Source: Arenicola marina (lineage: Eukaryota > Annelida > Polychaeta > Arenicolidae). From it: a DNA stretch of 64,000 bases. The position numbers and the translations under genes are program-made. Position 1 is the stretch's first letter. The number at the start of each line of letters is the position of its first letter. Of this stretch, positions 13,157 to 62,000 are shown piece by piece. Below the pieces are notes generated by a model. The model was not told where the DNA came from and made no database searches. It saw only the letters and a list, made by a program, of their open reading frames with translations. The DNA lies in assembly GCA_964019135.1 (NCBI GenBank), contig OZ025263.1, positions 19,259,123 through 19,323,122 of the forward strand, in the 5' to 3' direction.

Positions 13157-13174
13157 CAGTTTGCAAATTGTTGG

Positions 13175-24145: not shown

Positions 24146-24282
24146 TCGACTCTTCCCTTATTCTTCTATAAATAACAAGACAAGAAAACACAAAATAAGT
24201 AGGTAAACACTGAAATCTTTAATGACTAAAAGATCCGGCATAAAGGAAATACAAAAAGAAATATTACTTTGCGAGAAAATAC

Positions 24283-35000: not shown

Positions 35001-38000
35001 TTGTTTTTTTGCCACGAGTAAAGTATCGGAAGGATATTCTGTAACCAGACCACCTCCCTAAGTCGATCGATCAGTGGCAGTCCCGTCGTCGGTCGACTTA
35101 GAGAGGTTTTACTGTAGTTCATATTGACGTATGTTGCTTATGATTAGGGTACGCATGTTATACTTTCATGAGAATACCATTGATATAGATTCAATTGAAC
35201 AAAGGCAAGCGGGCGCTGCATAGCTGTCTCCAATATGCGTAGTATTCAAATATGAATAATAATGCATATGAACTGTTACAGTAGATACTTTAAAACTAAC
35301 TAAAATAACTAAAAACGTGTAAATACCCTCTCAGTTTGTTCATAGTTCACCACTTTCATATGTAGTCAATATCCTTCGGGTACGATCTAATGAAACAGTA
35401 AAATCCTGTTCCAGAATGCCTTTGAATATGCAACGAAAGAAAGAATTACGTGAGCGAACACAGATTTCACCGATCTAGTATCATCTAGTATAGTTAATCT
35501 ATGTGTTGGAGATACGTATCTGCACTAAATTGCATAGCTTAGATCAACATAGGACCAGTTGACTCACGTATGCAGGTGGTTCCGTCCGGCTGAAGCTTAT
35601 AACCGTCCGTGCAGTCGCATTTGTAGGCCCCGTGGGTATTTTCGCACGTGCCGTGGATGTCGTCACAGAAGATCGTGGTCGCACACTCGTCCACGTCTCA
35701 TTGAAAGTAAAGTATAAAACCGTAACACAACTAGAAAAGGAAGAGCATATATTGGAACATATGACAAGTTCCTCTTTGATAATCGAGTGAGAGAAATAAA
35801 TGCCTGAAACCGTCATCACTTGTTGTGTAGCAGGTTACCTTCACAAGTTTGTCCGTCGGTTGCCATGGTGAATCCACGGGGACAGAAGCACTGGGCGCTG
35901 GTTGCGTTACATCCGTGGCTACAGGTCAAGTCCGCGTCCTCACAAGGCGTCGTGGGGTTGCTGGACCGGTCTGACAGGACGAGGGAACCATGGCCACTTT
36001 AAGGCATCTATTACAACAGCATCAGTGTGATGTAAAGCCGTCTCTGATTGGCTGGATTAATAATCGAGCCAGTTTATCATTGCTTTCTATTTGCTTAACT
36101 CTGTGGCCAGCCCCAATTTATAAATTTAGGAAATGTGGCCATTTCCAATAAGTCTAATGTCCTAAATATGTAACCCACGACCGTATTTCTAACTGTGCCC
36201 TCTCCTCTCACTCGCTGTATTCACTCACCGTATTCACACGCCCCATCGGCTGTCAGCTTGCAGCCGTCTTGACACTCACTGTATTCACACGCCCCATTGA
36301 CTGTCAGCTTGCAGCCGTCTTGACACTCACTGTATTCACACGCCCCATTGGCTGTCAGCGTGTAGCCGTCTTGACACTCACTGTATTCACACGCCCCATT
36401 GGCTGTCAGCGTGTAGCCGTCCAGACACTCACTGTATTCACACGCCCCATTGGCTGTCAGCGTGTAGCCGTCCAGACACCCACCGTATTCACACGCCCCA
36501 TTGGCTGTTAGCGTGTAGCCGTCTTGACACTCACCGTATTCACACGCCCCATTGTCTGTCAGCGTTTAGCCGTCCAGACACTGACAACATTCACACGCCC
36601 CATTGGCTGTCAGCGTGTAGCCGTCCAGACACTCACCGTATTCACACGCCCCATTGGCTGTCAGCGTGTAGCCGTCCAGACGCACCGTATTCACACGCCC
36701 CATTGGCTGTCAGCGTGTAGCCGCTCAGACACTCACCGTATTCACACGCCCCATTGGCTGTCAGCGTGTAGCCGTCCAGACACTTACCGTATTCACACGC
36801 CCCATTGGCTGTCAACGTGTAGCCGTCCAGACACTCACTGTATTCACACGCCCCATAGGCTGGCAGCGTGTAGCCGTCCAGACACTCACTGTATTCACAC
36901 GCTCCATTGGCTGTCAGCGTGTAGCCGTCCAGACACTCACCGCATTCACAGGCCCCATCGGCTGTCAGCGTGTGGCCGTCCAGAAGCGCACCGTATTCAC
37001 ACGCCCCATTGACTGTCAGCGTGTAGCCGTCCAGACACTCACCGTATTCACACGCCCCATCGGCTGTCAGCGTGTGGCCGTCCAGAAACGCACCGTATTC
37101 ACACGCCCCATTGGCTGTCAGCGTGTAGCCGTCCAGACACTCACCGTATTCACACGCCCCATTGCCTGTCAGCGTGTAGCCGTTCAGACAGTCACCGCAT
37201 TCACACGCCCCATCGACTGTGTCAGCGTGTAGCCGTCCAGACACTCACCGTATTCACACGCCCCATTGGCTGTCAGCGTGTAGCCGTCCAGACACTCACC
37301 GTATTCACACGCCCCATTGCCTGTCAGCGTGTAGCCGTTCAGACAGTCACCGCATTCACACGCCCCATTGACTGTGTCAGCGTGTAGCCGTCCAGACACT
37401 CACCGTATTCACACGCCCCATCGGCTGTCAGCGTGTAGCCGTCCAGACAGTCACCGCATTCACACGCCCCATTGACTGTGTCAGCGTGTAGCCGTCCAGA
37501 CACTCACCGTATTCACACGCCCCATCGGCTGTCAGCGTGCAGCCGTCCAGACACTCACCGTATTCACACGCCCCATTGGCTGTCAGCGTGTAGCCGTCCA
37601 GACACTCACCGTATTCACACGCCCCATTGGCTGTCAGCGTGCAGGGGTCCAGACACTCACCGTATTCACACGCCCCATTGGCTGTCAGCGTGTAGCCGTC
37701 CAGACACTCACCGTATTCACACGCCCCATTGGCTGTCAGCGTGCAGCCGTCCAGACACTCACCGTATTCACACGCCCCATTGGCTGTCAGCGTGTAGCCG
37801 TCCAGAAACTCACCGTATTCACACGCCCCATTGGCTGTCAGCGTGCAGCCGTCCAGACACTCACCGTATTCACACGCCCCATTGGCTGTCAGCGTGTAGC
37901 CGTCCAGATACTCACCGTATTTACACGTCCCATTGGCTGTCAGCGTGTAGCCCTCCAGAAACTCACCGTATTCACACGCTCCATCGGCTGTCAGCGTGCA

Positions 38001-41000
38001 GCCGTCCAGACACTCACCGTATTCACACGCCCCATCGGCTGTCAGCGTGTAGCCGTCCAGACTCTCACCGTATTCACACGCCGCATCGGCTGTCAGCGTG
38101 TAGCCGTCCAGACACTCACCGTATTCACACGCTCCATCGGCTGTCAGCGTGCAGCCGTCCAGACACTCACCGTATTCACACGCACCATCGGCTGTCAGCG
38201 TGTAGCCGTCCAGACACTCACCGTATTCACACGCCCCATTGGCTGTCAGCGTGTAGCCGTCCAGACACTCACCGTATTCACAGGCCCCATTGGCTGTCAG
38301 CGTGTAGCCGTCCAGACACTCACCGTATTCACACGCCCCATTGGCTGTCAGCGTGTAGCCGTCCAGACACTTACCATATTCACACGCCTCATTGGCTGTC
38401 AGTGTGTAGCCGTCCAGACACTTACCATATTCACACGCCCCATTGGCTGTCAGCGTGTAGCCGTCCAGACACTTACCATATTCACACGCCCCATTGGCTG
38501 TCAGCGTGTAGCCGTCCAGACACTTACCATATTCACACGCCCCATTGGCTGTCAGTGTGTAGCCGTCCAGACACTCACACTCGTGCGTGCCCTCTAAGTT
38601 CTTACAGAGGTGACCACAATTGACGCGGCCTTCCGCGCACTCGTCGATATCTAAAACACGAATCAGTTATAAGTACACCCGTAATTGAAAGTGCAACGAT
38701 AAATCCAAGATTTTTCTAAAGAGGGAGGGTCAGTTTTGAACATGCTGAATGGGGTAAACTCTGTCAAGGACGCGTTGTGGGTTTTATGTGGTGGCGGGGG
38801 GGGGCGCCCCTCTCGGAGAAGTTAGATGGTTGGGGTGGGTGTCATCTGTTACGGTTTACGAAAAGCATAGCGTAGGATAATGAATGGCATCATCAGAACT
38901 GACCTTCACAAGACTGGGCGTTGGTTATTCGGTAACCAATGTGACAAGCGCAGTCATAACTCCCGGGAGTGTTGAGGCAGTCTTGACTGCAGCCCTGGGA
39001 TCCGCCCCCATCGCACTCATCCACATCTGTAATTAACATTAAGCCATAATGTTTATTGCAGGCCTCTGGAAAGTTGATCAGGAGTATATCTTTAAAATAC
39101 GCGCACGGATCGACAAGCCACTCTGTCATTGTTTTGTTTGTCAAGGGTTTATTTACACAGCGTGTGCTCAAATTGTCGAACTTTCAATAAAGTCGTTGCG
39201 TTGTGTTGAACATATTACTCAGTGGTACAACGAATCAAACTATGTAAATTCATATTTATTTATTTTAGTATACTGAAATAAAAAAATTGCATTCACATTT
39301 AACAACTTTGCTTAAATTGGAAGCTACGTGCAACACGTCACAGATATGTGTGTAGTCCAGCAACACGTCACATATATGTGTGTAGTCCAGCAACACGTCA
39401 CAGATATGTGTGTAATCCGGCAACACGTCACAGATATGTGTGTAGTCCAACGGTTCATTGCACCATTTCAGGGATGCTGAGGAGGCAGTTAATTTTAGCG
39501 ATAATGAATTTGACGCTAGTGATGAGAATAAATAGTTCCTGCACTAAGGCCATACAACGTAACAACATAAAATCCTGACCTTATTTTGGTTGGAAAATAA
39601 CTCTTGGAATAGCTTTAATTAGCTTTATGTCATTGCCATAAGTTGCAAATAACAGTTGACATTTGTGACATTTGAAATGTCACAATTATGAGATAAAGTA
39701 TCGCATCAAGTTTAAGTCCAAATATCACGATATTCATGATGACAAAGAGTGGACGCATATTTGAATAGGTTTACAATCTAATTGGCAGTGTGTCATTGGA
39801 AATTAAGTTTAAGATTATTGTTTGTATTTTTTCCTCCTATACTTTTGAACTGGCTGCCCCCTCACCGATGCAGTCCTTGTCAATAGGGTCCAGCTCAAAG
39901 CCTTCGGGACACCCGGAGCACGTGACGGCGGCGTTGAGGGTCTCCTCCTGCTCTGGGGTCAGGTCTGTGCAGTCGAAACCCTCGCAGGGGTTGTCCAGAC
40001 AACCGTCGTAATCCTCTTCACAGTGAGCGCCTGGAATAGGTGACGCGTGTGGCACTTATTACACTCTGGGTGACATTTATATGGTGGTTCTGATTTTGGA
40101 TTTACAGGAGACATTATCAGTGCCCATTAGAAAGTCGTTTCATTCTAAGGATAATGGTCCACACGGTTGCGAGAATATTACTGACATGCTTAATTAAGAC
40201 GCTTTTCGTATAAAGTCATTAACGCATCCAATATATCCAAGGTTTGTTTCTGCCCATATCCTAATTTACGGTAATAAATATTTCTGCACGGAGTTTTCTA
40301 ATGTTAAAACCTTTGGTGATGTCGTTCTTTAATTTCATTTACATGTAAGTTCCACATGTAAACATTACTCTCACCTCATATATGCAGTTAATGTGCAGAG
40401 GCGGATAGACGATTTGGGAAAAACAGAGCAGGTTAAGTTTGAGTTGATTAAACTGGACTTCCGCTCGTTGGAGGGGCGCGGGGGGGGGGGGGCGTCTTTT
40501 GCGCCCCTAAACTTGACACTCACGGAACGGGGCTGGCTGATGGCGGGTGGAGGGTGAGGTAGGAGTAGGTCTGAGGGTTAACCACTGACGCCCCTCCGCC
40601 TCTGGTGTCACCATAACAACATCAGTAGTGGCGACAAGAAAGAGTGACAAGCTTGATGCCACGTCGTCACCGTGACTGTACATGGGGAGTGATTCCACAG
40701 TCCTATGTCCCACTCCACACCACGAAGCAAGTGGCGCTGACACGGGTCACGGGTACCTACCTGTCCGCCCAGTGCTACAGTTGCAGGCCACGATCCTGAA
40801 GTTGTCTGTCGAGTTATGCGGTTGGTTGTCGGCCAGCTGGTCAAAGATACATTGACCGCCATTGGTGCAGTTACAGAGTCGGATTCTCGGGGTCAAGGCC
40901 GCTGACATCCCGCCTCTCGCGTCCTGGGCATTAAATCTATTGGTAGCCATTGTAGCAACCAATTGTAGTGTAAACTGTTTTATCAAGGTTATAACAATAG

Positions 41001-44000
41001 AACTGTGTTTTTTATAGTCACCTCAAGAGATCCTGCAATGGATAGGAGGTTGTGATGGGAAGGAGGGCAGGGCGCTAACCTCTGGTTCATTCAGACGGCT
41101 AGATTAATATATGATAAGAGCAAACGTTACTTTTAACGTCGCTATCCAAAAGTCAACAATAATCATTAGCACAAGTGCTATTGGCCGACAACAATATGAA
41201 ATAACAAATCTGGACTGTCAAAAATGATTGAAATTGCCCAATTTAAAAATGTACTTAGGTTTCACGTATTGGTAATAAAACCGTTAGAAACAGTGATATT
41301 CTCACGTGAAGGTCACTGGCTCCATAGATTCGGGAGCCCAGGTCAAGGTCAGCGTTCCGTTTTCGAAGGTGGCGCTTGTTTTCCTCGATGAGGTCATCCC
41401 GACCTTGACCTTGTCGCCGTCGGTATCCTCTACCATCACTGTGTACGTGTTGACCTGTCTGACCAACAGTTTAAAGGTGCCTTCTCCCAGCAAGGTGGGA
41501 CGAAAGTTTTCTGGACAGACACAAACACCGTTGATAGATATATCTGTCAGTATAAAGTTGGGACACTATATTTCTGTTGAAAATTCGAGATTATCTTAAC
41601 AGCGATGATAGGTCTAAAAGACATCTTAAAATTTGTTCTACATCTGACGACAAAAATGTATCCCCCCACCCAAAACCATTTTTTTTTCATTTTCTTAGTA
41701 TAGGTCCCTCGAGGGTACGCGGGACGCTAGATTTCACAGAATTCGGCCCCATAATGTTTTATGATCTTTTTTTTGCAGGCATTACTTATTTCAAAAGGTA
41801 ATCGATAACCTTAGCAAGTCCGATATATTCAAACAATAGCACCAAGCAAGGAGTAAAGATAATAAATACGTTCTGCAGTCGACCGTGGATGGATCTGAAC
41901 ACGGAAGATATAACGGCCAACTCGACTCACCCAGGTTGTCATGGTCATCCGTATTTTCTTGGTGGATTGCTTTGCTCGCAAGACCGACTGCCATATTGCC
42001 TGTACAGGAAATCAAGGCCAAATTCGGCATATGACAAACTAAGTACAGTGATGGTAAGACAGTCGCATGGACTCCTGCAGTAATGTCAGTAAACACGGAC
42101 ACTATCAGGCAAAGCACGGTCCAATGTAAATAGAAAATGAAGTGAAGGAAATAATTATATATGTTCATAGCATAGGCAAGGTGTCCAATATGGTAATAAC
42201 ATAACAAAATATACGTCTAAAATATAGAAATAATGGATGGGCATCCATGGCATCCCCCGCTTGTCCTCCCGGGCTTCTACGCCTATTAGAAGCCCTTCCT
42301 GCATGCACATATAAGGTCTACCGTAAGAACCACAAATTTCGTCTGGTCCCCAAGAATTGTTTGCGTCTTCACGTGTTCACCCTAATTTTAATAAAACTTA
42401 TATTAAAATTATGTTGGCGGCGTCATGCTTACCTTTGATGGCGGCGTCATGTTGACACTAAACTTACCTGTGATGGCGGCGTCATGCTGACAATAAGCGT
42501 ACCTGTGATGGCGGCGTCATGCTGACAATAAGCGTACCTGTAATGGCGGCGTCATGCTGACACTAAACTTACCTGTGATGGCGGCGTCATGCTGACAATA
42601 AGCGTACCTGTAATGGCGGCGTCATGCTGACACTAAACTTACCTGTGATGGCGGCGTCATGCTGACAATAAGCGTACCTGTGATGGCGGCGTCATGCTGA
42701 CAATAAGCGTACCTGTAATGGCGGCGTCATGCTGACACTAAACTTACCTGTGGTGGCGGCGTCATGCTGACACTAAACTTACCTGTGATGGCGGCGTCAT
42801 GCTGACACTAAACTTACCTGTGATGGCGGCGTCATGCTGATACTAAACGTACCTGTGATGGTGGCGTCATGCTGACACTAAACGTACCTGTGATGGTGGC
42901 GTCATGCTGACACTAAACGTACCTGTAATGGCGGCGTCATGCTGACACTAAACTTACCTGTGGTGGCGGCGTCATGCTGACACTAAACGTACCTGTGATG
43001 GCGGCGTCATGCTGACACTAAACGTACCTGTGATGGCGGCGTCATGCTGACACTAAACGTACCTGTGATGGCGGCGTCATGCTGACACTAAACGTACCTG
43101 TAATGGCGGCGTCATGCTGACACTAAACGTACCTGTGATGGCGGCGTCATGCTGACACTAAACGTACCTGTGATGGCGGCGTCATGCTGACACTAAACTT
43201 ACCTGTGATGGCGGTGTCATGCTGACACTAAGCGTACCTGTGACGGCGGCGTCATGCTGACACTAAACGTACCTGTAATGGCGGCGTCATGCTGACACTA
43301 AACTTACCTGTGGTGGCGGCGTCATGCTGACACTAAACTTACCTGTGATGGCGGTGTCATGCTGACACTAAACGTACCTGTGATGGCGGCGTCATGCTGA
43401 CACTAAACGTACCTGTGATGGCGGCGTCATGCTGATACTGAACCTACCTGTAATGGCGGCGTCATGCTGACAATAAACGTACCTGTGACGGCGGCGTCAT
43501 GCTGACACTAAACGTACCTGTAATGGCGGCGTCATGCTGACACTAAACTTACCTGTGGTGGCGGCGTCATGCTGACACTAAACTTACCTGTGATGGCGGT
43601 GTCATGCTGACACTAAACGTACCTGTGATGGCGGCGTCATGCTGACACTAAACGTACCTGTGATGGCGGCGTAATGCTGACACTAAACGTACCTGTGATG
43701 GCGGCGTCATGCTGACACTAAACGTACCTGTGATGGCGGCGTCATGCTGATACTAAACGTACCTGTGATGGCGGCGTCATGCTGACACTAAACGTACCTG
43801 TGATGGCGGCGTAATGCTGACACTAAACGTACCTGTGATGGCGGCGTCATGCTGACACTAAACGTACCTGTGATGGCGGCGTCATGCTGATACTAAACGT
43901 ACCTGTGATGGCGGCGTCATGCTGATACTAAACGTACCTGTGATGGCGGCGTCATGCTGACAGTAAACGTACCTGTGATGGCGGCGTCATGCTGATACTG

Positions 44001-47000
44001 AACCTACCTGTGATGGCGGCGTCATGCTGACACTAAACGTACCTGTGATGGCGGCGTCATGCTGATACTGAACCTACCTGTGATGGCGGCGTCATGCTGA
44101 CACTAAACGTACCTGTGATGGCGGTGTCATGCTGACACTAAACGTACCTGTGATGGCGGCGTAATGCTGACACTAAACGTACCTGTGATGGCGGCGTAAT
44201 GCTGACACTAAACGTACCTGTGATGGCGGTGTCATGCTGACACTAAACGTACCTGTGATGGCGGCGTCATGCTGACACTAAACGTACCTGTGATGGCGGC
44301 GTAATGCTGACACTAAACGTACCTGTGATGGCGGCGTCATGCTGACACTAAACGTACCTGTGATGGCGGCGTCATGCTGACACTAAACGTACCTGTGATG
44401 GCGGCGTCATGCTGATACTGAACCTACCTGTGATGGCGGCGTCATGCTGACACTAAACGTACCTGTGATGGCGGCGTCATGCTGACACTAAACGTACCTG
44501 TGATGGCGGCGTCATGCTGACACTAAACGTACCTGTGATGGCGGTGTCATGCTGACACTAAACGTACCTGTGATGGCGGCGTCATGCTGATACTGAACCT
44601 ACCTGTAATGGCGGCGTCATGCTGACACTAAACGTACCTGTGATGGCGGCGTCATGCTGACACTAAACGTACCTGTGATGGCGGTGTCATGCTGACACTA
44701 AACGTACCTGTGATGGCGGCGTCATGCTGATACTGAACCTACCTGTGATGGCGGCGTCATGCTGACACTAAACGTACCTGTGATGGCGGTGTCATGCTGA
44801 CACTAAACGTACCTGTGATGGCGGTGTCATGCTGACACTAAACGTACCTGTGATGGCGGCGTCATGCTGATACTGAACCTACCTGTAATGGCGGCGTCAT
44901 GCTGACAATAAACGTACCTGTAATGGCGGCGTCATGCTGACACTAAACGTACCTGTGATGGCGGCGTCATGCTGACACTAAACGTACCTGTGATGGCGGC
45001 GTCATGCTGACACTAAACGTACCTGTGATGGCGGCGTCATGCTGACACTAAACGTACCTGTAATGGCGGCGTCATGCTGACACTAAACGTACCTGTGATG
45101 GCGGCGTCATGCTGACACTAAACGTACCTGTAATGGCGGCGTCATTCTGACACTAAACTTACCTGTGATGGCGGCGTCATTCTGACACTAAACTTACCTG
45201 TGATGGCGGCTTGCTTACACTAAACTTACCTGTGATGGCGGCGTCATGCTGACACTAACTTACCTGTGATGGCGGCGTCATGCTGATAGTTAACTTACCT
45301 GTGATGGCGGCGTCATGCTGACAGTAAACTTACCTGTGATGGCGGCGTCATGCTGACAGTAAACGTACCTGTGATGGCGGCGTCATGCTGATACTAAACT
45401 TACCTGTGATGGCGGCGTCATGCTGACAGTAAACGTACCTGTGATGGCGGCGTCATGCTGATACTGAACGTACCTGTGATGGCGGCGTCGTACTGACACT
45501 AAACTTACCTGTGATGGCGGCGTCATGCTGACAGTAAACGTACCTGTGATGGCGGCGTCATGCTGATACTAAACTTACCTGTGATGGCGGCGTCATGCTG
45601 ACAGTAAACTTACCTGTGATGGCGGCGTCATGCTGACAGTAAACGTACCTGTGATGGCGGCGTCATGCTGATACTAAACTTACCTGTGATGGCGGCGTCA
45701 TGCTGACAGTAAACGTACCTGTGATGGCGGCGTCATGCTGATACTGAACGTACCTGTGATGGCGGCGTCGTACTGACACTAAACTTACCTGTGATGGCGG
45801 CGTCATGCTGACAGTAAACGTACCTGTGATGGCGGCGTCATGCTGATACTAAACTTACCTGTGATGGCGGCGTCATGCTGACAGTAAACGTACCTGTGAT
45901 GGCGGCGTCATGCTGATACTAAACTTACCTGTGATGGCGGCGTCATGCTGACAGTAAACGTACCTGTAATGGCGGCGTCATGCTGATACTAAACGTACCT
46001 GTGATGGCGGCGTCATGCTGACAGTAAACTTACCTGTGATGGCGGCGTCATGCTGACAGTAAACGTACCTGTGATGGCGGCGTCATGCTGATACTAAACT
46101 TACCTGTGATGGCGGCGTCATGCTGACACTAAACGTACCTGTAATGGCGGCGTCATGCTACACTAACCTTGCCTGTGATGGCGGCGTCATGCTGACACTA
46201 AACGTACCTGTGATGGCGGCGTCATGCTGACACTAAACTTGCCTGTGATGGCGGCGTCATGCTGACACTAAACGTACCTGTAATGGCGGCGTCATGCTAC
46301 ACTAACCTTGCCTGTGATGGCGGCGTCATGCTGACACTAAACGTACCTGTGATGGCGGCGTCATGCTGATACTAAACTTACCTGTGATGGCGGCGTCATG
46401 CTGACACTAAACGTACCTGTGATGGCGGCGTCATGCTGACACTAAACTTGCCTGTGATGGCGGCGTCATGCTGACACTAAACGTACCTGTAATGGCGGCG
46501 TCATGCTACACTAACCTTGCCTGTGATGGCGGCGTCATGCTGATACTAAACTTACCTGTGATGGCGGCGTCATGCTGACACTAAACGTACCTGTGATGGC
46601 GGCGTCATGCTGACACTAAACGTACCTGTGATGGCGGCGTCATGCTGACACTAAACGTACCTGTGATGGCGGCGTCATGCTGACACTAAACGTACCTGTG
46701 ATGGCGGTGTCATGCTGACACTAAACGTACCTGTGATGGCGGCGTCATGCTGACACTAAACGTACCTGTGATGGCGGCGTCATGCTGACACTAAACTTAC
46801 CTGTGATGGCGGCGTCATGCTGACACTAAACTTACCTGTGATGGCGGCGTCTTACTGACACTAAACTTGCCTGTGATGGCGGCGTCATGCTGACACTGCT
46901 TGTTGTCTCCACACTGACCCAGAACCTCCGCTGAGATCTGTAGACTGTCCGAGAAGACAGGCGTCACATGTAGATCGCGATATGTGTAGAACGACTCGCC

Positions 47001-50000
47001 GTGGAAATAGGTGAACAAGGACGCGTCAATGTTACCAAGCTTCCCTGCAGCAGTAAAACAAACCCAATATTATGACTGATTATTATGATGTGATGATATA
47101 TATGTCATTTGACTTGCATTGAGAAGGCGCATATATTCTAAGCATATTACCAGTGCTAGTTTACGATTACGGGAAGGGGGGATACGGGGTACGTACTAAG
47201 AAGTCAAGATTTGCTTTTCACTTTGGCTAGGTAAATCTGACAATTACTTGAATTAAAGGTAATATCTCTCAATTAGAGGCATAGCTTATTTGTCTTGGGC
47301 ATTTATGCAATTATTGGATATAAATGCATATTTATCTAAGATTTGTGAACTAATCAACTCGATTTCACCACATATGGAGCTAAAAACCGACCAAGGGCAA
47401 TATGTTTGTATTCGAGGTACTAACAGAGCTGGCCGAACTCGTGGAATATCTTCTCTTCCCCGGCGCCAGGTGGCAGCACTGTGCCATCCGGGGCCGTCAG
47501 GTCGTCCGCCGTGTTGTTGTTAAAGACTCCCAGGAGTCCCCGCGTCAGGCCCATGAACTCGGTGGGCGCGCCCACCACCAGATCCAACATCCGCTCCTTC
47601 AGGGTAATCGTCAGGGAGAAACCTGGCGGACAAACAGGATTAACTAATTCTATTCTCATGGCGTGTCTCCCTTAGTGAGCCAGTCCAACATCAACTATTT
47701 CAGCGTAATTGTCAGGGAGAAACCTGGACAAATGTAGAACACACGCTTGTTCGTGTCAAACTAGTGTGTTTGAAACCGTCCAATCGCAGGTCGCATGAAG
47801 ACCAGCAGTCATGGGTTAAAGGATGACAGGCTCATAGACCCTAGGAAATGTGCATGCTCCTTTCAAGATGGTCGACTGCAAGCATGTTTGATCTTCATGT
47901 TATAGCAGTAGGTTAATAAAAACATCTTTGGAGTATGAATTTGAAATTTTGATTTAGAATACTACTCATGTGGAAGAGTTGCATAGACGTTTATTTGGTC
48001 AAGTATGATGCTCCTGCAACTCGGTTGTCTTCCTAAAGAGTTTAGCAGTCAACACGCATTTGTAACTCTACTTAAGCCCGTAATCATCATATAACTCATG
48101 TTATTATATGCTGAGTCATACAGGTCAATGAAAGCGACAACTGCAGGTCGTTAGAATGTCATACCAGCGGTCAATACATGCTGGTATCAGAGGGCACGTG
48201 ATACAACGCTTGAAATAGAAAAGAAAAACTATTTCATAAATCAAAGGGTGAATTATTATCAAAATCAGCGATGACCGTGTTAGAGGTAATAACATGTCAC
48301 CTTTGTTCGTAGTCAAAACGCCTCAGATACAGGAGCAGAATGAGTAAACGTGAGGAAAAACTCCAACCAGAAAATAACTAGACCTGATTCAAACACAGCC
48401 TCCATGCTAGTGGCCGACGTTTTGGTGACAGTCATCAGGTAGTGATCAGTGGTGACGTTAACGGCGGCAGCGCGGAACTGGTCAGTCCAGTTGTTGTGGT
48501 TCACGTATAGATGTAGATCTGAGTCAAGCAAAACAGCAGCAGCCTTGAGATTAACGGGTCAACAGTAGGCCTATTGGTATTACACACAGTACTGTAATTA
48601 ATCATGATTTAATGGGTCTCACCCTTCTAGCTACATTTGCAAACAGCGAAAACACTACTAGCTAGGCCAGCAAACAAGATCATTATTGCTTCAGGTTTTG
48701 TCCGATAGTGTTTGCTTTTGTGCGTGCGTCGTGTCTTTGTGACTTTTTTTCTGGAGCAACTAAGCTTTCGTTTCACGTCATTGTTGAATGCATTATATAC
48801 CATATCCCTCGTTCATTTGTTAGGCAATAAATTACAAATATTACTCTTATTAAGATACCAAACATAACATTATTCTTGGTATGATCATGAGTATACGTAC
48901 CATGATGCAACTACCGAAACCTTACTATCGGAATAAAGAACAAGAAACAATAATATGAGCGTTGATATTGATTTCTTTGATTTTGTTCTTCCAACAAGTT
49001 CACCTGATCTGGCCGGGTCCATTTCCACTTGGACTGTGTCTGACTGGGCGTCTCGAACTGCAAAGGCGCTAAAAATGGTGGCGAGGACATCATTTCCGTT
49101 CTCATTCTGCGCCAGTCTAGTTCTCGCTTGGAGCGTGAAGTTGCCGCCTGTTGTCTCCAGCATGGTGTATTCTCCCAGTCCGTTAAAGGTGTACTCGAGG
49201 CCGTCCAGGGTGCGGATGTGAGGGTCACCGAAACCCCAGCCTGACCAGCAGGAAGAAATGATGATAAGACAAGCATCACGGGGGGGGTGGGGTGAAAGAA
49301 TGTCTAGATTTGGCGGCAAAGAGCCGTTGTCAGCTGTGTGAGACATTTGTCAAAATCCCGTGCCATGTCTGACCATTATTGCCATTCCATGATACTACGT
49401 CCAAAATCGCTCCACAATTCACTCTACCGGCTCAAAATGCTCCGCCCCCCCCACCCTCACCCCCGCCCTGGATCCGTCCTTGTAGCCTACCATTAAATCA
49501 GTGGTGCGATTCGGGGCCATATGTGCCCAACTCGCCAGCAGCAATTACTATGTCTGATTTCCTTTCCTAGCGGATACGTACTCCACCACGGTGGTCGGTA
49601 ACTCCCGCACGTGTCTATCGGACGGACGTCATAGAAGAGGCGGCAGTTGTCCGATAGATGGCAGCACCACTCCTTGGGGTCGACGTCTCTGCTGAGGTGG
49701 AGGCCTTGACCCAGTGAGCTGCGTGGGTTGGCCATCATGAGGTGTCCCCCACGGCCGTCCTCCGTCCGGATCAGCGGCGCCGACCACAGGATCCAGAACC
49801 AGGACCAGGACCGCCGCCACCCAGTGTCATAGCAACACATCTGTGCAGGGCAGTAAGTAATAAAACACTCTCCGGAATGTAGATGTTGCCCAATACTCTC
49901 TGAATACATGTAATTCAATGCGACAGCATAGAGACAAAATGCTACATAAAGACGTTTTCAGTATAACGGTATGATGTACATATAGTGTTGCAATGTAGGC

Positions 50001-53000
50001 AAGTAAGCAGTATTGTCCATGGTTCATGAGTTCAAGAACCTAGTAGGAATATGCATCGGATAGGATGATGTAAGGTAGACCGCTTCATGCATAGCGGCAT
50101 ACCTTGGACACATAGCGGCATACCTTGGACACATAGCGGCATACCTTGGACACATAGCGGCATACCTTGGACACATAGCGGCATACCTTGGACACATAGC
50201 GGCATACCTTGGACACATAGCGGCATACCTTGGACACATAGCGGCATACCTTGGACACATAGCGGCATACCTTGGACACATAGCGGCATACCTTGGACAC
50301 ATAGCGGCATACCTTGGACACATAGCGGCATACCTTGGACACATAGCGGCATACCTTGGACACATGGCGGCATACCTTGGACACATAGCGGCATACCTTG
50401 GACACATAGCGGCATACCTTGGACACATGGCGGCATACCTTGGACACATAGCGGCATACCTTGGACACATAGCGGCATACCTTGGACACATAGCGGCATA
50501 CCTTGGACACATAGCGGCATACCTTGGACACATGGTTGCGACTGTTTGCGATGAAACATTCTGTCTGGCTCGTGTCGTTTGTGGAGTGAGTGATCCAACG
50601 TCGATCCCAGGAGAGCTGACGCCGGTCGCAGGGGCACTGGGCGGTCAGCCAGTCGTTGTAGATCCAGAACGGCAGCCCATTCCCGGATCTCTCGGCCACC
50701 CACCAGTCGATGCACTTCTGGCCGTAGTCGATAGAGGGCGCGCCGGTCGACAGTGTGTAGACCCACGTGGCCATTATCCCAAAGTTCCCCACCAGACGAT
50801 CCATTCTGAACGCATTCGGTTTATTAGAGTGTGGATTGCTGTATTCAATGACGTCTGCGCCTGCGCGGGCCGTGTAGCCAATCATAGAGTCCCGGATATA
50901 GCGTTCAGAGTCCCAATTGGTGCGCGGGTAGTTGAAGAATGTAACGGATTTTTTGTAGAGACTGTCGCTTATGATTACCAACTGAACAGTGTTTGGCTGC
51001 GGGGAATAAATAGTGAAACAATAGCCATTGTTTTTGTCGTAAGAAATAAACATCACTAGCAAAGACATAAACCACATAATGAGGATCGGATAATGCAAGG
51101 AGCCTTTCTCCCTAACATAAATGCTGTAAAATCCTCAACGATTGTCTAATCATAGGGTCAAAACCTACTGAAAATGTGTGGAAGTTATGTTTATGAATCA
51201 ATAATTGTCACAAAGTAATGTCAGGATATATATACTTATTTTACAAAGTAAGCTATGGCCATAAGTACGTCATCTTCCTTTACCGGGCGCTGATCGTCGT
51301 AAACACGTGGGTAGATGTTGACCCACGTGACCACCACGACCAATGAGGCGTCGAACTGCGAGAAGCCGCTATAGCTGACGGCGTCTGCACTGGCCTTGTT
51401 CAGAACCTGCCGCGTGGTGGCGACAGTGTCGGGGTTGGAGGAGGCCAGCTGGGTGCGGTCGTACCACTGGTACCAGATCTCGGTTCCCGGTCGCAACTTG
51501 GCGTCAACCCACAGCGGGGCGAGCACCACCATCTTATCGAACCGAGCACCCCACTGGGAGGGGGGCTTCCGCGCTCTGTGGAACTCCCCCAAACTGACCA
51601 AACCATTAGCGTGAACCTGCGTAGGTTAAAGAGGAAAACATCTGCTATAAAGAATGGTTTTCACACTGTCATGGTAGAGTCAATAAATGTGAAAGCTGTA
51701 CTATTTACCACGTAAATCTTGAAGAATGCAAGTTAATCGAGACCGTAAATTATGCCTCAAGCAAGTTGTACTCGAAGACTTTATGTCGTAGTTTACTGCG
51801 TAAAATATAGTACAACTTTGACATCATTTCATATCGATATTTCTAACTATAACAGAGAACATAGTTAAATAACAAAATAGGTTCTCAAGAAATATAAATG
51901 TTGAATACGGCGGTATGACATAAGGTACCTGTTTCCCGCACGTTAGGCATGCACTATATGCGTCTGGATATTGTTGGACAATATAACGGCGCCATACAGT
52001 TTGCCATAGTAATATAGTTTCCATTATATTTTTCAAATTACTGATTGATTGATTGATTTATTTAAGATGTATCGTCATATCGCGACAATGGGAAGTGTTT
52101 TGGAAGGAACCATGTCTACGTTTTTTCCTTCCTCAACAATAAATGGAAATTGAAGAAATACGAAAGAGCACAATAGCTACAATGGAAAACTCAAAACAAC
52201 CGTAATCTGACCTGGATCCTGTTATATGAATGTCCGTTCACCCATAGCTTCGGTAACGAGAGTTTGGTGGTGTGGCAGGAGGTAGAGCTGGCGTCAGGGC
52301 TACAGATCAGCAGCAGGTCTCCCATCTCTAACCCGTAGTGGTATTCTGGTGGTATTCAACACAGGAGGCTATGAACGATCATTACAGAAGAACAGATCGT
52401 TGGCGGAAATCTGGCAACCAGTTGTTTCTATGGCCACTATTATGTTATTGTTGCCATCAGCAATTGCAAATTTAAGTATTATTTTACATTCAGACCTTTG
52501 TTCACGCTGTGGCGACGACGGCATATCACTGCCCTATACGGCATATCACTGCCCTATACGGCATATCACTGCCCTATACGACATATCACTGCCCTATACG
52601 GCATATCACTGCCCTATACGACATATCACTGCCCTATACGACATATCACTGCCCTATACGGCACATCACTGCCCTAAACGGCATATCACTGCCCTGTACG
52701 GCATATCACTGCCCTATACGGCATATCACTGCCCTATACGACATATCACCGCCCTATACGGCATATCACCGCCCTATGCGGCACATCACTGCCCTATGCG
52801 GCATATCACTGCCCTATACGGCATATCACTGCCCTATGCGGCATATCACTGCCCTATACGGCATATCACTGCCCTATACGACATATAACTGCCGTACATG
52901 GCATATCACTGCCATATACGGCCTATCACTGCCCTATACGGCATATCACTGCCCTATACGGCATATCACTGCCCTATGCGGCATATCAATTCCCTAAACG

Positions 53001-56000
53001 GCATATCACTGCCCTATACGGCCTTTCACTGCCCTATACGACATATCACTGCCCTATGCGGCATACCACTGCCATATACGACATATCACTGCCCTATACG
53101 ACATATCACTGCCCTATACGGCATATCACTGCCCTATACGGCATATCACTGCCCTATACGGCATATCACTGCCCTATGCGGCATACCACTGCCATATACG
53201 ACATATCACTGCCCTATACGACATATCACTGCCCTATACGGCATATCACTGCCCTATACGGCATATCACTGCCCTATACGGCATATCACTGCCCTATGCG
53301 GCATACCACTGCCATATACGACATATCACTGCCCTATACGACATATCACTGCCCTATGCGGCATACCACTGCCATATACGAAATATCACTGCCCTATACG
53401 ACATATCACTGCCCTATACGGCATATCACTGCCCTATACGGCATATCACTGCCCTATACGACATATCACTGCCCTATACGGCATATCACTGCCCTATACG
53501 ACATATCACTGCCCTATACGACATATCACTGCCCTATACGACATATCACTGCCTAATACGACATATCATTGCCCAATACGGCATATCACTGCCCTATACG
53601 ACATATCACTGCCCAATGCGGCATATCACTGCCCAATACGGCATATCACCGCCCTATACGGCATATCACTGCCCTATACGGCATATCACTGCCCTATACG
53701 ACATATCACTGCCCTATACGGCATATCACCGCCCTATACGGCATATCACTGCCCTATACGGCATATCACTGCCCTATACGACATATCACTGCCCTATACG
53801 GCATATCACTGCCCTATACGACATATCACTGCCCTATACGACATATCACTGCCCAATACGGCATATCACTGCCCTATACGACATATCATTGCCCAATACG
53901 GCATATCACTGCCATATATAGCATATCCCTGCCCTATATGGCCTATCACTGCCCAATACGGCATATCACTGCCATATATAGCATATCCCTGCCCTATATG
54001 GCCTATCACTGCCCTATACGGCATATCACTGCCCTATACGGCATATCACTGCCCTATACGGCATATCACTGCCCATTACTGCATATCACTGCCCTATACG
54101 ACATATCACTGCCCTATACGACATATCACTGCCCTATGCGGCATATCACTGCCCTATAGGCATATCACTGCCCTATACGGCATATCACTGCCCTATACGA
54201 CATATCACTGCCCTATGCAACATATCACTGCCCTATGCGGCATATCACTGCCCTATACGACATATCACTGCCCTATGCGGCATATCACTGCCCTATACGG
54301 CATATCACTGCCCTATACGACATATCACTGCCCTATGCGGCCTATCACTGCCCTATAGGCGTATCACTGCCCTATAGGCATATCACGGCCCTATACGGCA
54401 TACCACTGCCCTATACGACATATCACTACCCTATGCGACATATCACTGCCCTATACGGCATATCACTGCCCTATGCGACATATCACTGCCCTATGCGGCA
54501 TATCACTGCCCTATAGGCGTATCACTGCCCTATAGGCATATCACGGCCCTATACGGTATATCCCTGCCCTATGCGACATATCACTACCCTATAGGCATAT
54601 CACTGCCCTATACGGCCTTTCACTGCCCTATACGGCATATCACTGCCCTATACGGCATAACCCTGCCCTATGCGGCATATCACTGCCCTATACGGCATGT
54701 CACTGCCCTATAGGCATATCACTGCCCTGTACGGCCTTTCACTGCCCGATACGGCATATCACTGCCCTATACGGCATATCACTGTCCTATTAGCATATCA
54801 CTGCCCTATGCGGCATATCACTGCCCTATGCGGCATATCACTGCCCTATACGGCATATCACTGCCCTATACGACATATCACTGCCCTATGCGACATATCA
54901 CTGCCCTATGCGGCATATCACTGACCTATACGACATATCACTGCCCTATGCGACATATCACTGCCCTATACGGCATATCACTGCCCTATACGACATATCA
55001 CTGCCCTATGCGGCATATAACTGCCCTATAGGCATATCACTGCCCTATGCGGCATATCACTGCCCTATACGACATATCACTGCCCTATGCGGCATGTCAC
55101 TGCCCTATAGGCATATCACTGCCCTGTACGGCCTTTCACTGCCCTATACGGCATATCACTGGCCTATACGGCATATCACTGTCCTATTAGCATATCACTG
55201 CCCTATGTGGCATATCACTGCCCTATGCGGCATATCACTGCCCTATACGGCATATCACTGCCCTATACGACATATCACTGCCCTATGCGACATATCACTG
55301 CCCTATGCGCATATCACTGACCTATACGACATATCACTGCCCTATGCGACATATCACTGCCCTATACGGCATATCACTGCCCTATACGACATATCACTGC
55401 CCTATGCGGCATATAACTGCCCTATAGGCATATCACTGCCCTATGCGGCATATCACTGCCCTATACGACATATCACTGCCCTATACGACATATCACTGCC
55501 CTATGCGGCATATCACTGCCCTATAGGCGTATCACTGCCCTATAGGCATATCACGGCCCTATACGGCATATCACTGCCCTATTCGACATATCACTACCCT
55601 ATACGACACATCACTGCCCTATGCGGCATATCACTGCATTATACGGCATATCACTGCCCTATACGGCATATCACTGCCCTATACGGCATATCACTGCCCA
55701 TTACTGCATATCACTGCCCTATACGACATATCACTGCCCTATACGACATATCACTGCCCTATGCGGCATATTACTGCCCTATAGGCATATCACTGCCCTA
55801 TACGGCATATCACTGCCCTATACGACATATCACTGCCCTATGCAACATATCACTGCCCTATGCGGCATATCACTGCCCTATACGACATATCACTGCCCTA
55901 TGCGGCATATCACTGCCCTATACGGCATATCACTGCCCTATACGACATATCACTGCCCTATGCGGCCTATCACTGCCCTATAGGCGTATCACTGCCCTAT

Positions 56001-59000
56001 AGGCATATCACGGCCCTATACGGCATATCACTGCCCTATACGGCATATCACTGCCTTATGCGACATATCACTGCCCTATTCGACATATCACTGCCCTATA
56101 CGGCATATCACTGCCCTATGCGACATATCACTACCCTATAGGCATATCACTGCCCTATACGGCCTTTCACTGCCCTATACGGCATATCACTGCCCTATAC
56201 GGCATATCACTGCCCTATGCGGCATATCACTGCCCTATACGGCATGTCACTGCCCTATAGGCATATCACTGCCCTGTACGGCCTTTCACTGCCATATACG
56301 GCATATCACTGCCCTATACGGCATATCACTGTCCTATTAGCATATCACTGCCCTATGCGGCATATCACTGCCCTATGCGGCATATCACTGCCCTATACGG
56401 CATATCACTGCCCTATACGACATATCACTGCCCTATGCGACATATCACTGCCCTATGCGGCATATCACTGACCTATACGACATATCACTGCCCTATGCGA
56501 CATATCACTGCCCTATACGGCATATCACTGCCTTATGCGACATATCACTGCCCTATGCGGCATATCACTGCCCTATACGACATATCACTGCCCTATGCGG
56601 CATATCACTGCCCTATACGGCATATCACTGCCCTATACGGCATATCACTGCCCTATACGGCATATCACTGCCCTATACGACATATAACTGCCGTACATGG
56701 CATATCACTGCCATATACGGCCTATCACTGCCCTATACGACATATCACTGCCCTATGCGGCATATAACTGCCCTATAGGCATATCACTGCCCTATGCGGC
56801 ATATCACTGCCCTATACGACATATCACTGCCCTATACGACATATCACTGCCCTATGCGGCATATCACTGCCCTATACAACATATCACTGCTCTATGCGGC
56901 ATATCACTGCCCTATGCGGCATATCACTGCCCTATGCGACATATCACTGCCCTATGCGGCATATCACTGCCCTATAGGCGTATCACTGCCCTATAGGCAT
57001 ATCACGGCCCTATACGGCATATCACTGCCCTATTCGACATATCACTACCCTATACGACATATCACGGCCCTATACGGCATATCACTGCCCTATGCGACAT
57101 ATCACTGCCCTATGCGGCATATCACTGCCCAATAGGCGTATCACTGCCCTATAGGCATATCACGGCCCTGTACTGCATATCACTGCCCTATACGGCATAG
57201 CACTGCCCTATACGGCATATCACTGCCCTATACGTCTAGCACTGCCCTATGCGGCCTTTCACTGCCCTATGCGGCATATCACTGTCCTATGCGGCATATC
57301 ACTGCCCTATACGGCATATCACTGCCCTGTACGGCATAGCACTGCCCTATACGGCATATCACTGCCCTATACGTCTAGCACTGCCCTATGCGGCATATCA
57401 CTGCCCTATGCGGCATATCACTGCCCTATACGGCATATCACTACCCTATACGGCATATCACTGCCCTATACGGCATATCACTACCCTATACGGCATATCA
57501 CTGCCCTATGCGGCCTTTCACTGCCCTATGCGGCATATCACTGCCCTATACGGCATATCACTGCCCTATACGGCATATCACTACCCTATACGGCATATCA
57601 CTGCCCTATACGGCATATCACTACCCTATACGGCATATCACTGCCTATACAGCTCGCGTTCATTTCTTTCCGCGGTATAATTTCTGCCTTGTTCCTCGAG
57701 AGAAATTGATAATTTTTAAACGTTACATGTCTAGTGGGTTGACAATAACATACGCCACATTCTAGTAAGAGTTAACGTAACATGCATTTACTGCAGGGTA
57801 ATTTGGGTTATAAGTGTTTTCACACCATATACTTACGAGTGGGAATTCCAGCTGCGTAGAAGATAGAAGAAATACCATGCATGATATGCAACAGCAAACA
57901 TGTCACATAGTCGCATTGACTGTATAAGAACATATTTATCACTAAAATAGACCCACTGTCACTATAATAATGATGGTGTCAATTGAAAGCGTAAAGCAGT
58001 GTATATATATATATATGATCCTAATATTATAATTATAGTATACCAGCATACTACAGCTGAGGAACAATAACAATGAGATGAATTATGACAGCTAATACCG
58101 ACATAATTCATGACAGTTATTCACGACATTCTTTGAGGTATGTGTAGCAAGTGTTTCTTTTTACTGTTGTTATTTCAACGACAATGAATGTAAATGTTGA
58201 ATGTATGTATATATTTCTTTTTGTACTTATATTTATGACATTCTAGGCATAAAAATGGTATAATAAATAAAAGCAAAGTATTAAACAATATTATTCTGAT
58301 ATTGATTCGCTTAAAAGTCAAAAGGTGCACTGTTTGGCCTATAAAGGATCAGTGCCACACGATAAATAAGGTTTTAATCATACTGAAGATGGCTCGCATG
58401 ATGTAAGAAAGGCACGTGTTTTTAACTCGGCATAGGGGGCAAGGACCAGATAACTTGCAACAATAGGCTTTGCTGCAGACGGGGTGACACTGTGGCCCAA
58501 GCGGCCGGTGCGTGGTTCGAATCCCACCTGGGTAACGGTATATTCGAAAAGAGTAGAGGGCTGCCACCGGAGACATGGCTGCTCTCTACATTGAGCCAAG
58601 CAAACGGTTGGAATATAATCTACAGAAAACATTAAGTCATACTTAAAAACAACCAATCAAGTAAAATACCCATAGCAACTTACGCTCCACGTTGATGCTC
58701 TGGTTGTCGATGCCCCATGAAGGATTCAAGATGGCGGCATCACGAAGGGCGTCCGCGGCAACCTGGGCTTTGTTCTCCTCCGTCAGCAGCAAGGTGAAGG
58801 TCACCCGAGCCTGTGCCGACGGGTTGGCAGCCTCAACGTATTCCGTTCTGCCGTGGAAAGAAAACGCGTCATTTCATACCGAATAATGAGCTTTTTTTGT
58901 GTGCGGAATGTTGCGGAAACTATTTGGAACAGTGGTGCTATTTGTGGCGAAATCAACCTTGCGTTACACACATAAACACACAAATCCCTATGTTTGGCCA

Positions 59001-62000
59001 GTAGGTGGGAGCATACTATTATGACATTATGGGAGGGGGGGGGGTATATAAAAAGGGGTAGGCAACCAAGTATATGAGGAAGGTTGTTTTGTCGACAAAA
59101 GATTCCTGGAGCTGATGAGCATTCAAGACGGGGGGACATTATATGGTTAATATAAATTTATTGTTTGGTCGCTGTGTGTGTTACTACTGTATGTTCATAT
59201 CAATTGTACTAGCGCTGGAGGCCATAGTACGCAATAGAGTTTAAATATATTAAGAAGCACTTACGTGAAAGCAAGTTCCTTGAGGGTCACTATGGTGCCC
59301 CTGAAGACAGTGTGGCAGCCCCACACATTCCACATCTAGAAACAGGACAATTTAAGACCCAGTTACTCACGTACTTTAAAGTTTGGATACACCTACATAA
59401 CCTTAGTTGATATCATTCTCCCATGCTTACTCGCTAACCTTCCTTTCATGTTCTGGGTGAATTTTGTAGCTTCCTATCTGTCTTTTAGGGGGAAGGAAAA
59501 TTACGTAATAGAGACACACAAACGCAGGTGGTTTTATGTGTCCCTTTTCTTTGTATGTAACTTGAGGAAAACACTCAACATTCTTATTTGTTTGACTGTA
59601 GTTAAGATAGTTAAATTTGAACTAAGTGATAATGTGTTCAGTAAGACACCTATTTGTAAAAATGCGCGGCGCATTTTTGCTATCAATTTGCGCAGGGCCG
59701 CCCTGGCGAGTGTAAAAATGCATTGAGGAAGTAGGCGACAACAGAGATATCATGGAGCTCTAGCGGCGGGAGTCGAAGGCAGAGTTCCCCAATGCCAATG
59801 TCAAACACCACTTTATTCAATGTCTGATGTCATCTACAATCCATTAAACTCAATCTGTCACATTTTGCTTATGTTTACATGTACAAATGCCGCCATCTTG
59901 GAATAGCCTCTCCCGCCCCTCTCCTCCACCGCACAGTGGCCGACCCGATAGTTCAGTGGGTCAGAACGAACGCATTCAGCGCAAAGAGTGAAGGGTTACC
60001 CAGGTGACATGGCCCCGCTCTTTCCTTCTCCCATTGACGCGATATGGCTAGATGTACTGATGTACTGGGCCACTGATGTACTGGGCCACTGATGTACTGG
60101 GCCACTGATGTACTGGGCAACTGATGTACTGGGCCACTGATGTAATGGGCCACTGATGTACTGGGCTACTGATGTACTGGGCCACTGATGTACTGGGCCA
60201 CTGATGTACTGGGCCACTGATGTACTGGGCCACTGATGTACTGGGCCACTGATGTACTGGGCCACTGATGTACTGGGCTACTGATGTACTGGGCCACTGA
60301 TGTACTGGGCCACTGATGTACTGGGCCACTGATGTACTGGGCCACTGATGTACTGGGCCACTGATGTACTGGGCCACTGATCTACTCGGTCACTGATGTA
60401 CTCGGCCACTGATGTACTCGGTCACTAATGTGCTCGGCCACTAATGTACTCGGTCACTGATGTACTGGGCCACTGATGTACTGGGCCACTGATGTACTGG
60501 GCAACTGATGTACTGGGCCACTGATGTACTGGGCCACTGATGTACTCGGCGCCACTGATGTACTGGGCCACTGATGTACTGGGCCACTGATGTACTCGGC
60601 CACTGATGTACTGTGCCACTGATGTACTGGGCCACTGATGTACTGTGCCACTGATGTACTGTGCCACTGATGTACTGGGCCACTGATGTACTCATTGATT
60701 TACATCCGCCATCGAGTAGTGTTACTCCCGCCTGCCATTTACTCAATCATATATTTCTTGGGCTCTAACATCAAAGATGGACAGATTGGGGGAGCATATG
60801 TAGTTGTATCTCGACTTGTTTTTTCCTTTTTATCCAATTCTCTGCTTTAGTTTTCCTGTATGATGTGACACTTCACTAGGTCAGTTGGTAAGCAGGCTTA
60901 CCTACAGACCCAATCATCAGGTCGGGGGTTCGAACCCTGTCATATGCATCTTATGTTGGATCCAACTTCATTTTATTGACCCGCAATGATTTTTGACCCA
61001 ATTTGGTATTCATGTGCTGAAAAGCGCTCTAAATAACAACCACTTCATTTCAGTTCATTATGATACAGATATTGTGGCATATCAACATATACAACAACTA
61101 TAGGATACCCACCAAGCGGCTGACCCTATTCTTCAGCTCCAGGTAGGAATCAGAAGTGACGTCAGCGTGATCCGAGGTCAGGACCTCGTCTTGCATCCGG
61201 AAGTGACCTTTGTAGTGGACCGGCGTCGGACTAAAGACGAAATCCTCGGGACACACTGGCAACAAAAAGCCAAAGTTAGAGGGCGAAGAAATGACAAGAC
61301 GTTATTTACATCTTAAGCTGTATGTAATCCAGGCCTGGAAACTTAATGTGGGAAATGTTTCCTAGATGCCTACAACACCTCGTCGCGGAGGTTCCTTGGC
61401 CCAATGTAGCGCATATCAGCACAAATGTGACTTAAGTCACCAATTCACAGTGTCTCAGTAACCAAACGCTAATGCGAGGTTCACCCGCAACATCACTAAG
61501 AACGATTTTTATCACCCAACATCAGTCAAAATGGCGAAAATGTAAATCCTCTGCCTAAATGTTCGTCCATATGAGGGGAATTCAAACGGAGAATATTAAT
61601 TATAAAACTCACCTACATTCCGGTCAGTGGTAGTCACAGTGCCAGAGAGAGGGGCCGTAGTCCTATCTGTGGTGACTTTAGTGACATTATCAGGGATGGT
61701 AATGTCAGAGGGTTGCGGGAGCGTGGACCCTGGGTAGGAGTCAGTGACGTCATCAAATATGGTTGGGGCAGAGGGAGGTGGGGCAGTGGTCTCTGTGATT
61801 GAGTCAGTGACGTCATCAAAGATGGTGGTGACGGATAGAGGTGGGGAAGTGGTCTCTGGGATGGAGTCAGTTACGTCATCAAAGGTGGTGGTGTGAGATA
61901 GGGGTGGGGCAGTGGTCTCTGGGATGGAGTCAGTGACGCCATCAAAGATGGTCTCAGATAGGGGTGGGGAAGTGGTCTCTGAGATGGAGTCAGTGACGTC

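What the first reader, a model, noticed from the sequence alone, without database searches (positions are those of the whole stretch)
36218..50536. Three unrelated minisatellites in one gene each straddle a 5' splice site
In the MUC4-like gene the introns after exons 8, 13 and 18 begin inside tandem arrays with units of 21, 35 and 51 bp. The units share no sequence, but all have the same anatomy: the end of the exon, the donor GT/GC and the first intron bases. Roughly 195 potential donor sites follow three exons. Three independent cases with the same phase of array relative to the splice site argue against chance and point to a mechanism that seeds or tolerates repeats at donors, such as buffering by equivalent donors, replication slippage at the junction or DNA repair linked to transcription. 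From memory, splice-junction minisatellites have been described in amphioxus; I cannot verify this here.
Basis: partly seen in the sequence, partly recalled or inferred. Interest (0 to 1): 0.9.

Follow-up and report, generated by a model that had tools for sequence, protein, structure and literature searches.

The report
Splice-donor minisatellites ("mirages") in one gene
Three places in one mucin-like animal gene carry long tandem arrays that copied the end of an exon together with its splice signal; this is real and resembles the 'mirage' repeats described in amphioxus genes, but here it seems to be in a different group of animals, probably an annelid worm.

Summary
In a minus-strand MUC4-like gene, three unrelated arrays (21, 35, 51 bp units; 21, 128, 46 copies) begin inside an exon and run on into its intron. 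All 195 copies carry a donor dinucleotide (189 GT, 6 GC). A 21-exon model without a stop in 1174 codons, and homologues lacking array-like insertions at these junctions, place the exon ends at the first copies.

The kind is known: amphioxus 'mirages' and the human IFI6 minisatellite. The window is very probably not amphioxus: its protein is nearest siboglinid annelids (38-43% identity; amphioxus about 30%), and a tree puts it among spiralians.

Most likely, small duplications across three donors grew into the introns and are tolerated because the original donor stays at the exon edge. The donor excess is unlikely by chance (P about 0.001-0.002) but post hoc. I found no sign that the extra donors are conserved, or that the 51-bp array is under coding constraint. 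In the 35-bp array only the first donor, a GC site, keeps the frame open, although 116 of 127 rivals are predicted to pair better with U1, many only slightly. That is the testable part.

The parts
50090..50533 (-). 21-bp array, 21 copies; unit ATGTGTCCAAG|GTATGCCGCT; first 11 bp are the end of exon 8
50523..50996 (-). exon 8 (NIDO2), donor AAG|GTATGCCG, phase 0
   Evidence: alignment of homologues
49582..49840 (-). exon 9, joins at phase 0 (SK|MCCYD)
42430..46897 (-). 35-bp array, 128 copies; first 27 bp are the end of exon 13; first donor GC, copies 2-3 GTAAGT, commonest donor GTACGT (74 copies with CAG|GTACGTTT)
46871..47044 (-). exon 13 (VWD4/C8-3 region), donor CAG|GCAAGTTT, phase 1
41931..41999 (-). 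exon 14, joins at phase 1 (AAITG|NMAVG)
36222..38578 (-). 51-bp array, 46 copies; first unit is the last 51 bp of exon 19 and opens with exonic GTGAGTG, the 7-mer found in at least 27 of the 46 donors
38528..38650 (-). exon 19 (EGF_CA), donor ATG|GTAAGTGT, phase 1
35839..35970 (-). exon 20, joins at phase 1 (GACEY|DRSSN)
35568..61676 (-). 21-exon part of the MUC4-like gene (end of PTS, SEA-like, NIDO, VWD, C8-3_MUC4, EGF), 1174 codons without a stop
61613..63999 (-). open PTS-type coding repeat (about 63-bp units) upstream in the same gene; the array ends about 67 bp before its donor, so it is not a junction array

Best explanation
These are three independent 'mirage' minisatellites. At each site a short tandem duplication copied the end of the exon with its donor. 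Slippage or unequal exchange then multiplied the unit into the intron. The exon-edge copy still works as the donor, so the surplus copies are removed as intron sequence and the arrays are nearly neutral passengers. Shown: the anatomy, exon origin of the 35- and 51-bp units, frame and homology support for the first donor, lack of donor-specific conservation. Inferred: the duplication step, and that splicing picks the first donor, perhaps because it is transcribed and bound first.
For: Arrays start 11, 27 and 51 bases inside exons and every unit carries the donor (195 of 195). The exonic parts of the 35- and 51-bp units encode sequence conserved in other animals (CxxDxAITG; EGF CxDGYTL), so those units came from the exon. 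First donors give 1174 codons without a stop over 20 introns. In 22 homologues that I picked from the 120 listed, none shows repeated units at these junctions: at the 35-bp junction 21 of 22 read on without insertion (one ends in a gap); at the 21-bp junction some carry extra residues that are not array-like (most in Dimorphilus); at the 51-bp junction 14 of 22 have residues after it and 8 end in gaps. Donor 9-mers vary no less than the rest of the unit: 5.56 v 3.85 variants per position (35 bp, 122 of 127 units used) and 3.00 v 1.50 (51 bp, 41 of 45). The open part of the 51-bp array shows no coding constraint: 26 of 36 codon differences nonsynonymous, 0.72 v 0.69 expected. Published amphioxus mirages have the same anatomy and apparently normal splicing.
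Against: No RNA data. Homologues are predicted proteins, so gene callers may have skipped repeats. In the 35-bp array the first donor is a GC site and 116 of the 127 others have stronger predicted U1 pairing, so use of the first donor is not what pairing strength predicts; but for the 74 commonest the difference is only 0.5 kcal/mol. In human IFI6 downstream repeat units are used as donors (PMC4526556 passage).
Confidence: 0.75

Rival explanations
1. Functional multi-donor arrays: downstream copies are used, adding 7 or 17 residues per unit (21 and 51 bp) or making frameshifted, decayed mRNA (35 bp) that tunes expression.
For: All 21 donors of the 21-bp array and 21 of 46 of the 51-bp array are frame-preserving and stop-free; copies 2-3 of the 35-bp array have better predicted U1 pairing than copy 1. 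Human IFI6 uses downstream repeat units as donors (passage in PMC4526556).
Against: No donor-specific conservation in the 35- and 51-bp arrays, no coding constraint in the 51-bp array, no repeated units at the junctions of 22 picked homologues; 127 of 128 donors of the 35-bp array shift the frame or meet a stop.
Confidence: 0.15
2. Chance: a window rich in tandem arrays, in which three of six happened to fall on donors of one gene.
For: Arrays are dense in this window (TRF reports 36 rows, some overlapping), and the case was selected because of the pattern.
Against: P about 0.001 to 0.002 for donors and 0.009 for either junction under random seeding.
Confidence: 0.1
3. A donor-linked mutational mechanism (compatible with the best explanation): donor-like motifs in the exon pair with the true donor during replication slippage or repair and seed the duplication.
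For: In the 51-bp array the exonic edge is GTGAGTG, the 7-mer of at least 27 of its 46 donors. Two short repeats in the window, at 26270-26350 and about 27179-27243, hold a second GTAAGT-bearing unit.
Against: Only 3 bp (ATG) are shared at the ends of the 21-bp array and no clear homology is seen at the 35-bp array; the first four donors of the 51-bp array are GTAAGTG, one base off the exonic motif. One good case in three is weak, and no chance level was computed.
Confidence: 0.25
4. The arrays are assembly artefacts.
For: Copy numbers of long arrays are hard to assemble; no reads were available.
Against: Copies in the 35- and 51-bp arrays differ by substitutions and small indels. The 21-bp array has only two unit types, so its copy number is less sure.
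Confidence: 0.03

Closest known systems
Amphioxus 'mirages' (Adh3, globins BflGb6 and BflGb9, TnC, PGBD5)
   Same: Tandem repeats across an exon-intron boundary, many units with splice signals, units of 10-160 bp, splicing reported as regular (passages of PMC3087553 and PMC3902484).
   Different: Both 5' and 3' boundaries there; BflGb6 has 6 and 3 units in two haplotypes. Here three donor arrays lie in one gene with 21, 128 and 46 copies, in a probable spiralian.
Human IFI6 (6-16) minisatellite, Turri et al. 1995
   Same: A minisatellite that provides multiple splice donors (title seen in reference lists; passage in a citing paper; the paper itself is not held).
   Different: Downstream units are reported as used there, giving three mRNAs; here only frame and homology evidence exists and it favours the first donor.
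Earthworm metallothionein first-intron minisatellites (PMC12783039)
   Same: An annelid gene with intron minisatellites (passages).
   Different: Described as lying within the first intron, mean monomers 178 and 181 bp; the passages read do not describe them as crossing a donor.

Membership tests
Mirage minisatellite | Tandem repeat spans an exon-intron boundary | tested here: met
   Modelled exon ends 50523, 46871, 38528 lie inside the arrays
Mirage minisatellite | Repeat units carry the splice signal | tested here: met
   195 of 195 copies have GT (189) or GC (6)
Mirage minisatellite | mRNA splicing is not disturbed | not testable with these tools
   No RNA; frame and homologues agree with the first donor
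Mirage minisatellite | Length instability between alleles or cells | not testable with these tools
   One haplotype only
Mirage minisatellite | Found in amphioxus (where the name was coined; not part of the definition) | tested here: not met
   Protein nearest to siboglinid annelids; amphioxus hits 29-31% identical; tree of 25 rows
Multi-donor minisatellite of the IFI6 type | Several repeat units used as donors | not testable with these tools
   Needs RNA; possible by frame for the 21- and 51-bp arrays, not for the 35-bp array
MUC4-like gene | NIDO, VWD, C8-3_MUC4 and EGF domains | tested here: met
   Pfam hits above curated cut-offs
MUC4-like gene | AMOP domain | tested here: inconclusive
   No Pfam hit up to E = 1, though the region aligns to homologues
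MUC4-like gene | SEA domain | tested here: inconclusive
   SEA at E = 0.18, 12.4 bits against a cut-off of 26.4

The most novel reading that the evidence does not exclude
Donor-straddling minisatellites are not an amphioxus oddity but the product of a general mutational process at transcribed 5' splice sites, seen here three times in one spiralian gene; and the spliceosome commits to the exon-proximal donor, even a weaker GC site, against up to 127 near-identical rivals downstream, which implies a first-transcribed-first-bound rule rather than a strength rule.
Probability: 0.3. Interest if true: 0.75.

Novelty: new member of a known kind. Interest (0 to 1): 0.5.

Why it matters
The three arrays are a natural experiment in splice-site choice: 21, 128 and 46 nearly identical donors in a row behind one exon. 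The 35-bp array is the sharpest case, since only its first donor keeps the reading frame open. If transcripts use it, rules based on donor strength or nearness to the intron are insufficient. A probable annelid example would also mean that mirages arise more widely in animals, which bears on how donors duplicate and how introns are gained.

Tried and rejected
Coding array: the first 21 units of the 51-bp array are open in the exon frame, but codon differences fit neutrality, so exonisation was not favoured; the 21-bp array is open throughout and too uniform to test. Donor conservation by selection: not seen in the 35- and 51-bp arrays. Array peptides in homologues: none at these junctions in 22 picked proteins; a repeat scan of the 121 proteins then fetched listed 11 with tandem peptides, whose positions I did not compare with the three junctions. 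Amphioxus origin: judged very unlikely. Species from mobile-element reading frames: one search gave one hit (39%, unnamed jgi contig) and one hit (82%, unnamed lgn contig), neither informative. tRNA and Rfam scans: 0 hits. Donor-like strength of other arrays' units: the three junction arrays hold the strongest sense-strand donors among the arrays of this gene. Recursive splicing was considered for the 35-bp unit (CAG|GTAAGT could act as acceptor and donor at once); the 51-bp unit lacks an AG before its GT, so it cannot be general, and it was not pursued. I do not claim that such arrays are unreported outside chordates: nine paper searches were run, most listed papers were not opened, and in the passages opened (five papers) the cases at splice donors were amphioxus genes and human IFI6.

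Full report
What was checked. Tandem Repeats Finder gives arrays at 50090-50533 (21 bp, 21.1 copies, 99% matches), 42430-46897 (35 bp, 127.9 copies, 93%) and 36222-38578 (51 bp, 46.1 copies, 92%). The gene is on the minus strand. From open frames and splice signals I built 21 exons between 61676 and 35568. After moving one acceptor 13 bases upstream to keep phase, they read 1174 codons with no stop. Pfam finds NIDO, VWD, C8-3_MUC4, EGF_CA, cEGF and FXa_inhibition above their cut-offs. AMOP is not found up to E = 1 and SEA only at E = 0.18. 'MUC4-like' is therefore fair.

The junctions. Exons 8, 13 and 19 end at 50523, 46871 and 38528, so their last 11, 27 and 51 bases belong to the arrays. A walk through each array found 21, 128 and 46 donors: 195 in all, 189 GT and 6 GC, none lost. 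Next-exon phases agree with these donors. I aligned 22 homologues, picked from the 120 listed. None shows repeated units at the junctions NHVSK|MCCYD, AAITG|NMAVG and GACEY|DRSSN. At the second, 21 of 22 read on without insertion and one ends in a gap. At the first, some carry extra residues that do not resemble the array (most in Dimorphilus). At the third, 14 of 22 have residues after the junction and 8 end in gaps. These are predicted proteins, so gene callers may have skipped repeats. The exonic parts of the 35- and 51-bp units encode protein sequence conserved in other animals, so those arrays grew from the exon; the 21-bp unit's residues are not conserved.

What the copies can do. In the 21-bp array all 21 donors keep the frame with no stop. 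In the 51-bp array 21 of 46 do, 11 keep the frame but meet a stop, and 14 shift the frame. In the 35-bp array only the first of 128 does; 42 keep the frame but meet a stop and 85 shift it. That first donor is CAG|GCAAGTTT (U1 duplex -7.4 kcal/mol). Of the other 127, 116 are predicted to pair better: 30 are CAG|GTAAGTTT (-12.1), copies 2 and 3 among them, but 74 are CAG|GTACGTTT, only 0.5 kcal/mol better. In the 51-bp array 24 donors are at most 0.3 kcal/mol better than the first; in the 21-bp array all are equal. U1 duplex energy is a crude proxy for donor strength.

Selection. Counting only full-length units (122 of 127 and 41 of 45 inter-donor units), the nine donor positions are not more conserved than the rest: 5.56 v 3.85 variants per position (35 bp) and 3.00 v 1.50 (51 bp). 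The GT itself is not unusually constant: 16 of 35 and 10 of 51 dinucleotides, GT included, are at least as constant. Among 21 in-frame 51-bp units, 26 of 36 codon differences are nonsynonymous (0.72; neutral expectation 0.69). The 21-bp array has only two unit types and is probably young. Neighbouring 51-bp units are somewhat more alike than distant ones (0.937 at separation 1, 0.894 at 40), as local turnover would give; the 35-bp array shows no such decline (0.942 at 1, 0.944 at 100).

Chance. With each array reduced to one unit and six seeds placed at random in 13,060 bases with 20 donors, three or more donors are straddled with P = 0.0010; with wholly exonic seeds barred 0.0021; for donors or acceptors 0.0090. 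The six arrays are those of TRF between 35568 and 61613 without the two-copy row 58081-58129; the coding PTS array lay outside the test. In my model the other three (60056-60692, 52518-57650 and 39330-39449) are purely intronic. The test is post hoc and does not prove a donor-directed process.

Origin of the seeds. The 51-bp array opens with exonic GTGAGTG (TGT GAG TGT, Cys-Glu-Cys of the EGF domain), the 7-mer of at least 27 of its 46 donors, though its first four donors are GTAAGTG. Pairing of an exonic look-alike with the true donor could have made the first duplication. The ends of the 21-bp array share only ATG, and the 35-bp array shows no clear homology at its ends. This is suggestive in one of three.

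Organism. Of 2233 homologues (best 120 listed) the top nine are Ridgeia or Lamellibrachia (siboglinid annelids), at 38-43% identity; the amphioxus entries in the list are at 29-31%. In a 25-row tree of proteins that I picked, the window protein groups with five siboglinid proteins (93/92, just short of the program's mark for a firm branch) inside a spiralian set of 15 (100/100); the root is the midpoint and many branches are long. Species is unknown; an annelid is likely and amphioxus very unlikely.

Known kind. 'Mirages' were named for tandem repeats spanning exon-intron boundaries in amphioxus Adh3 and were then reported in globin genes, TnC and PGBD5, at 5' and 3' boundaries, apparently without disturbing splicing (passages of PMC3087553 and PMC3902484; the Adh3 and TnC papers were not seen). 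In human IFI6 a minisatellite provides several donors and three mRNAs (passage of PMC4526556; the 1995 paper is not held). The finding is a new member of this kind, notable for three arrays in one gene, high copy number and a probable spiralian host.

Verdict. Observation confirmed. Most likely passengers: junction duplications that grew into introns and are tolerated because the original donor stays at the exon edge. What remains open, and worth an experiment, is how the first donor is chosen in the 35-bp array. No RNA and no genome-wide scan were available.

Noticed in passing
window 26270-26350 and about 27179-27243 (minus strand): Two places 0.9 kb apart share a segment (83% identical over 65 bp), each with two copies of a unit holding GAGGTAAGT or GAAGGTAAGT; they look like short donor-bearing tandem duplications upstream of a possible transmembrane exon of the same gene.
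   Followed up: partly
window 13173-21814: A 46-bp array of 188 copies flanked on both sides by a 114-bp sequence 93% identical in direct orientation, as if inside a mobile element or a duplicated block.
   Followed up: partly
window 57837-57851: Apparent 15-bp micro-exon (cag|CTGGAATTCCCACTC|gtaagt) placed between the SEA-like and NIDO exons; it keeps the phase.
   Followed up: no
P0007 (Ridgeia piscesae): The predicted protein holds a duplicated GEVNTLLLTTY segment, near the position that corresponds by eye to exons 14-15 here; possibly a tandem duplication in the tubeworm gene.
   Followed up: no
window 23723-24157 and 30605-31282 (minus strand): Reading frames that look by eye like pieces of retrotransposons; the first has an 82% identical relative on an unnamed contig, the second a 39% one.
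   Followed up: partly
window 61613-63999: Open coding array of about 63-bp units (TTxFDDVTDSIPETTxPPLS), a PTS-type mucin repeat that runs off the window edge.
   Followed up: no
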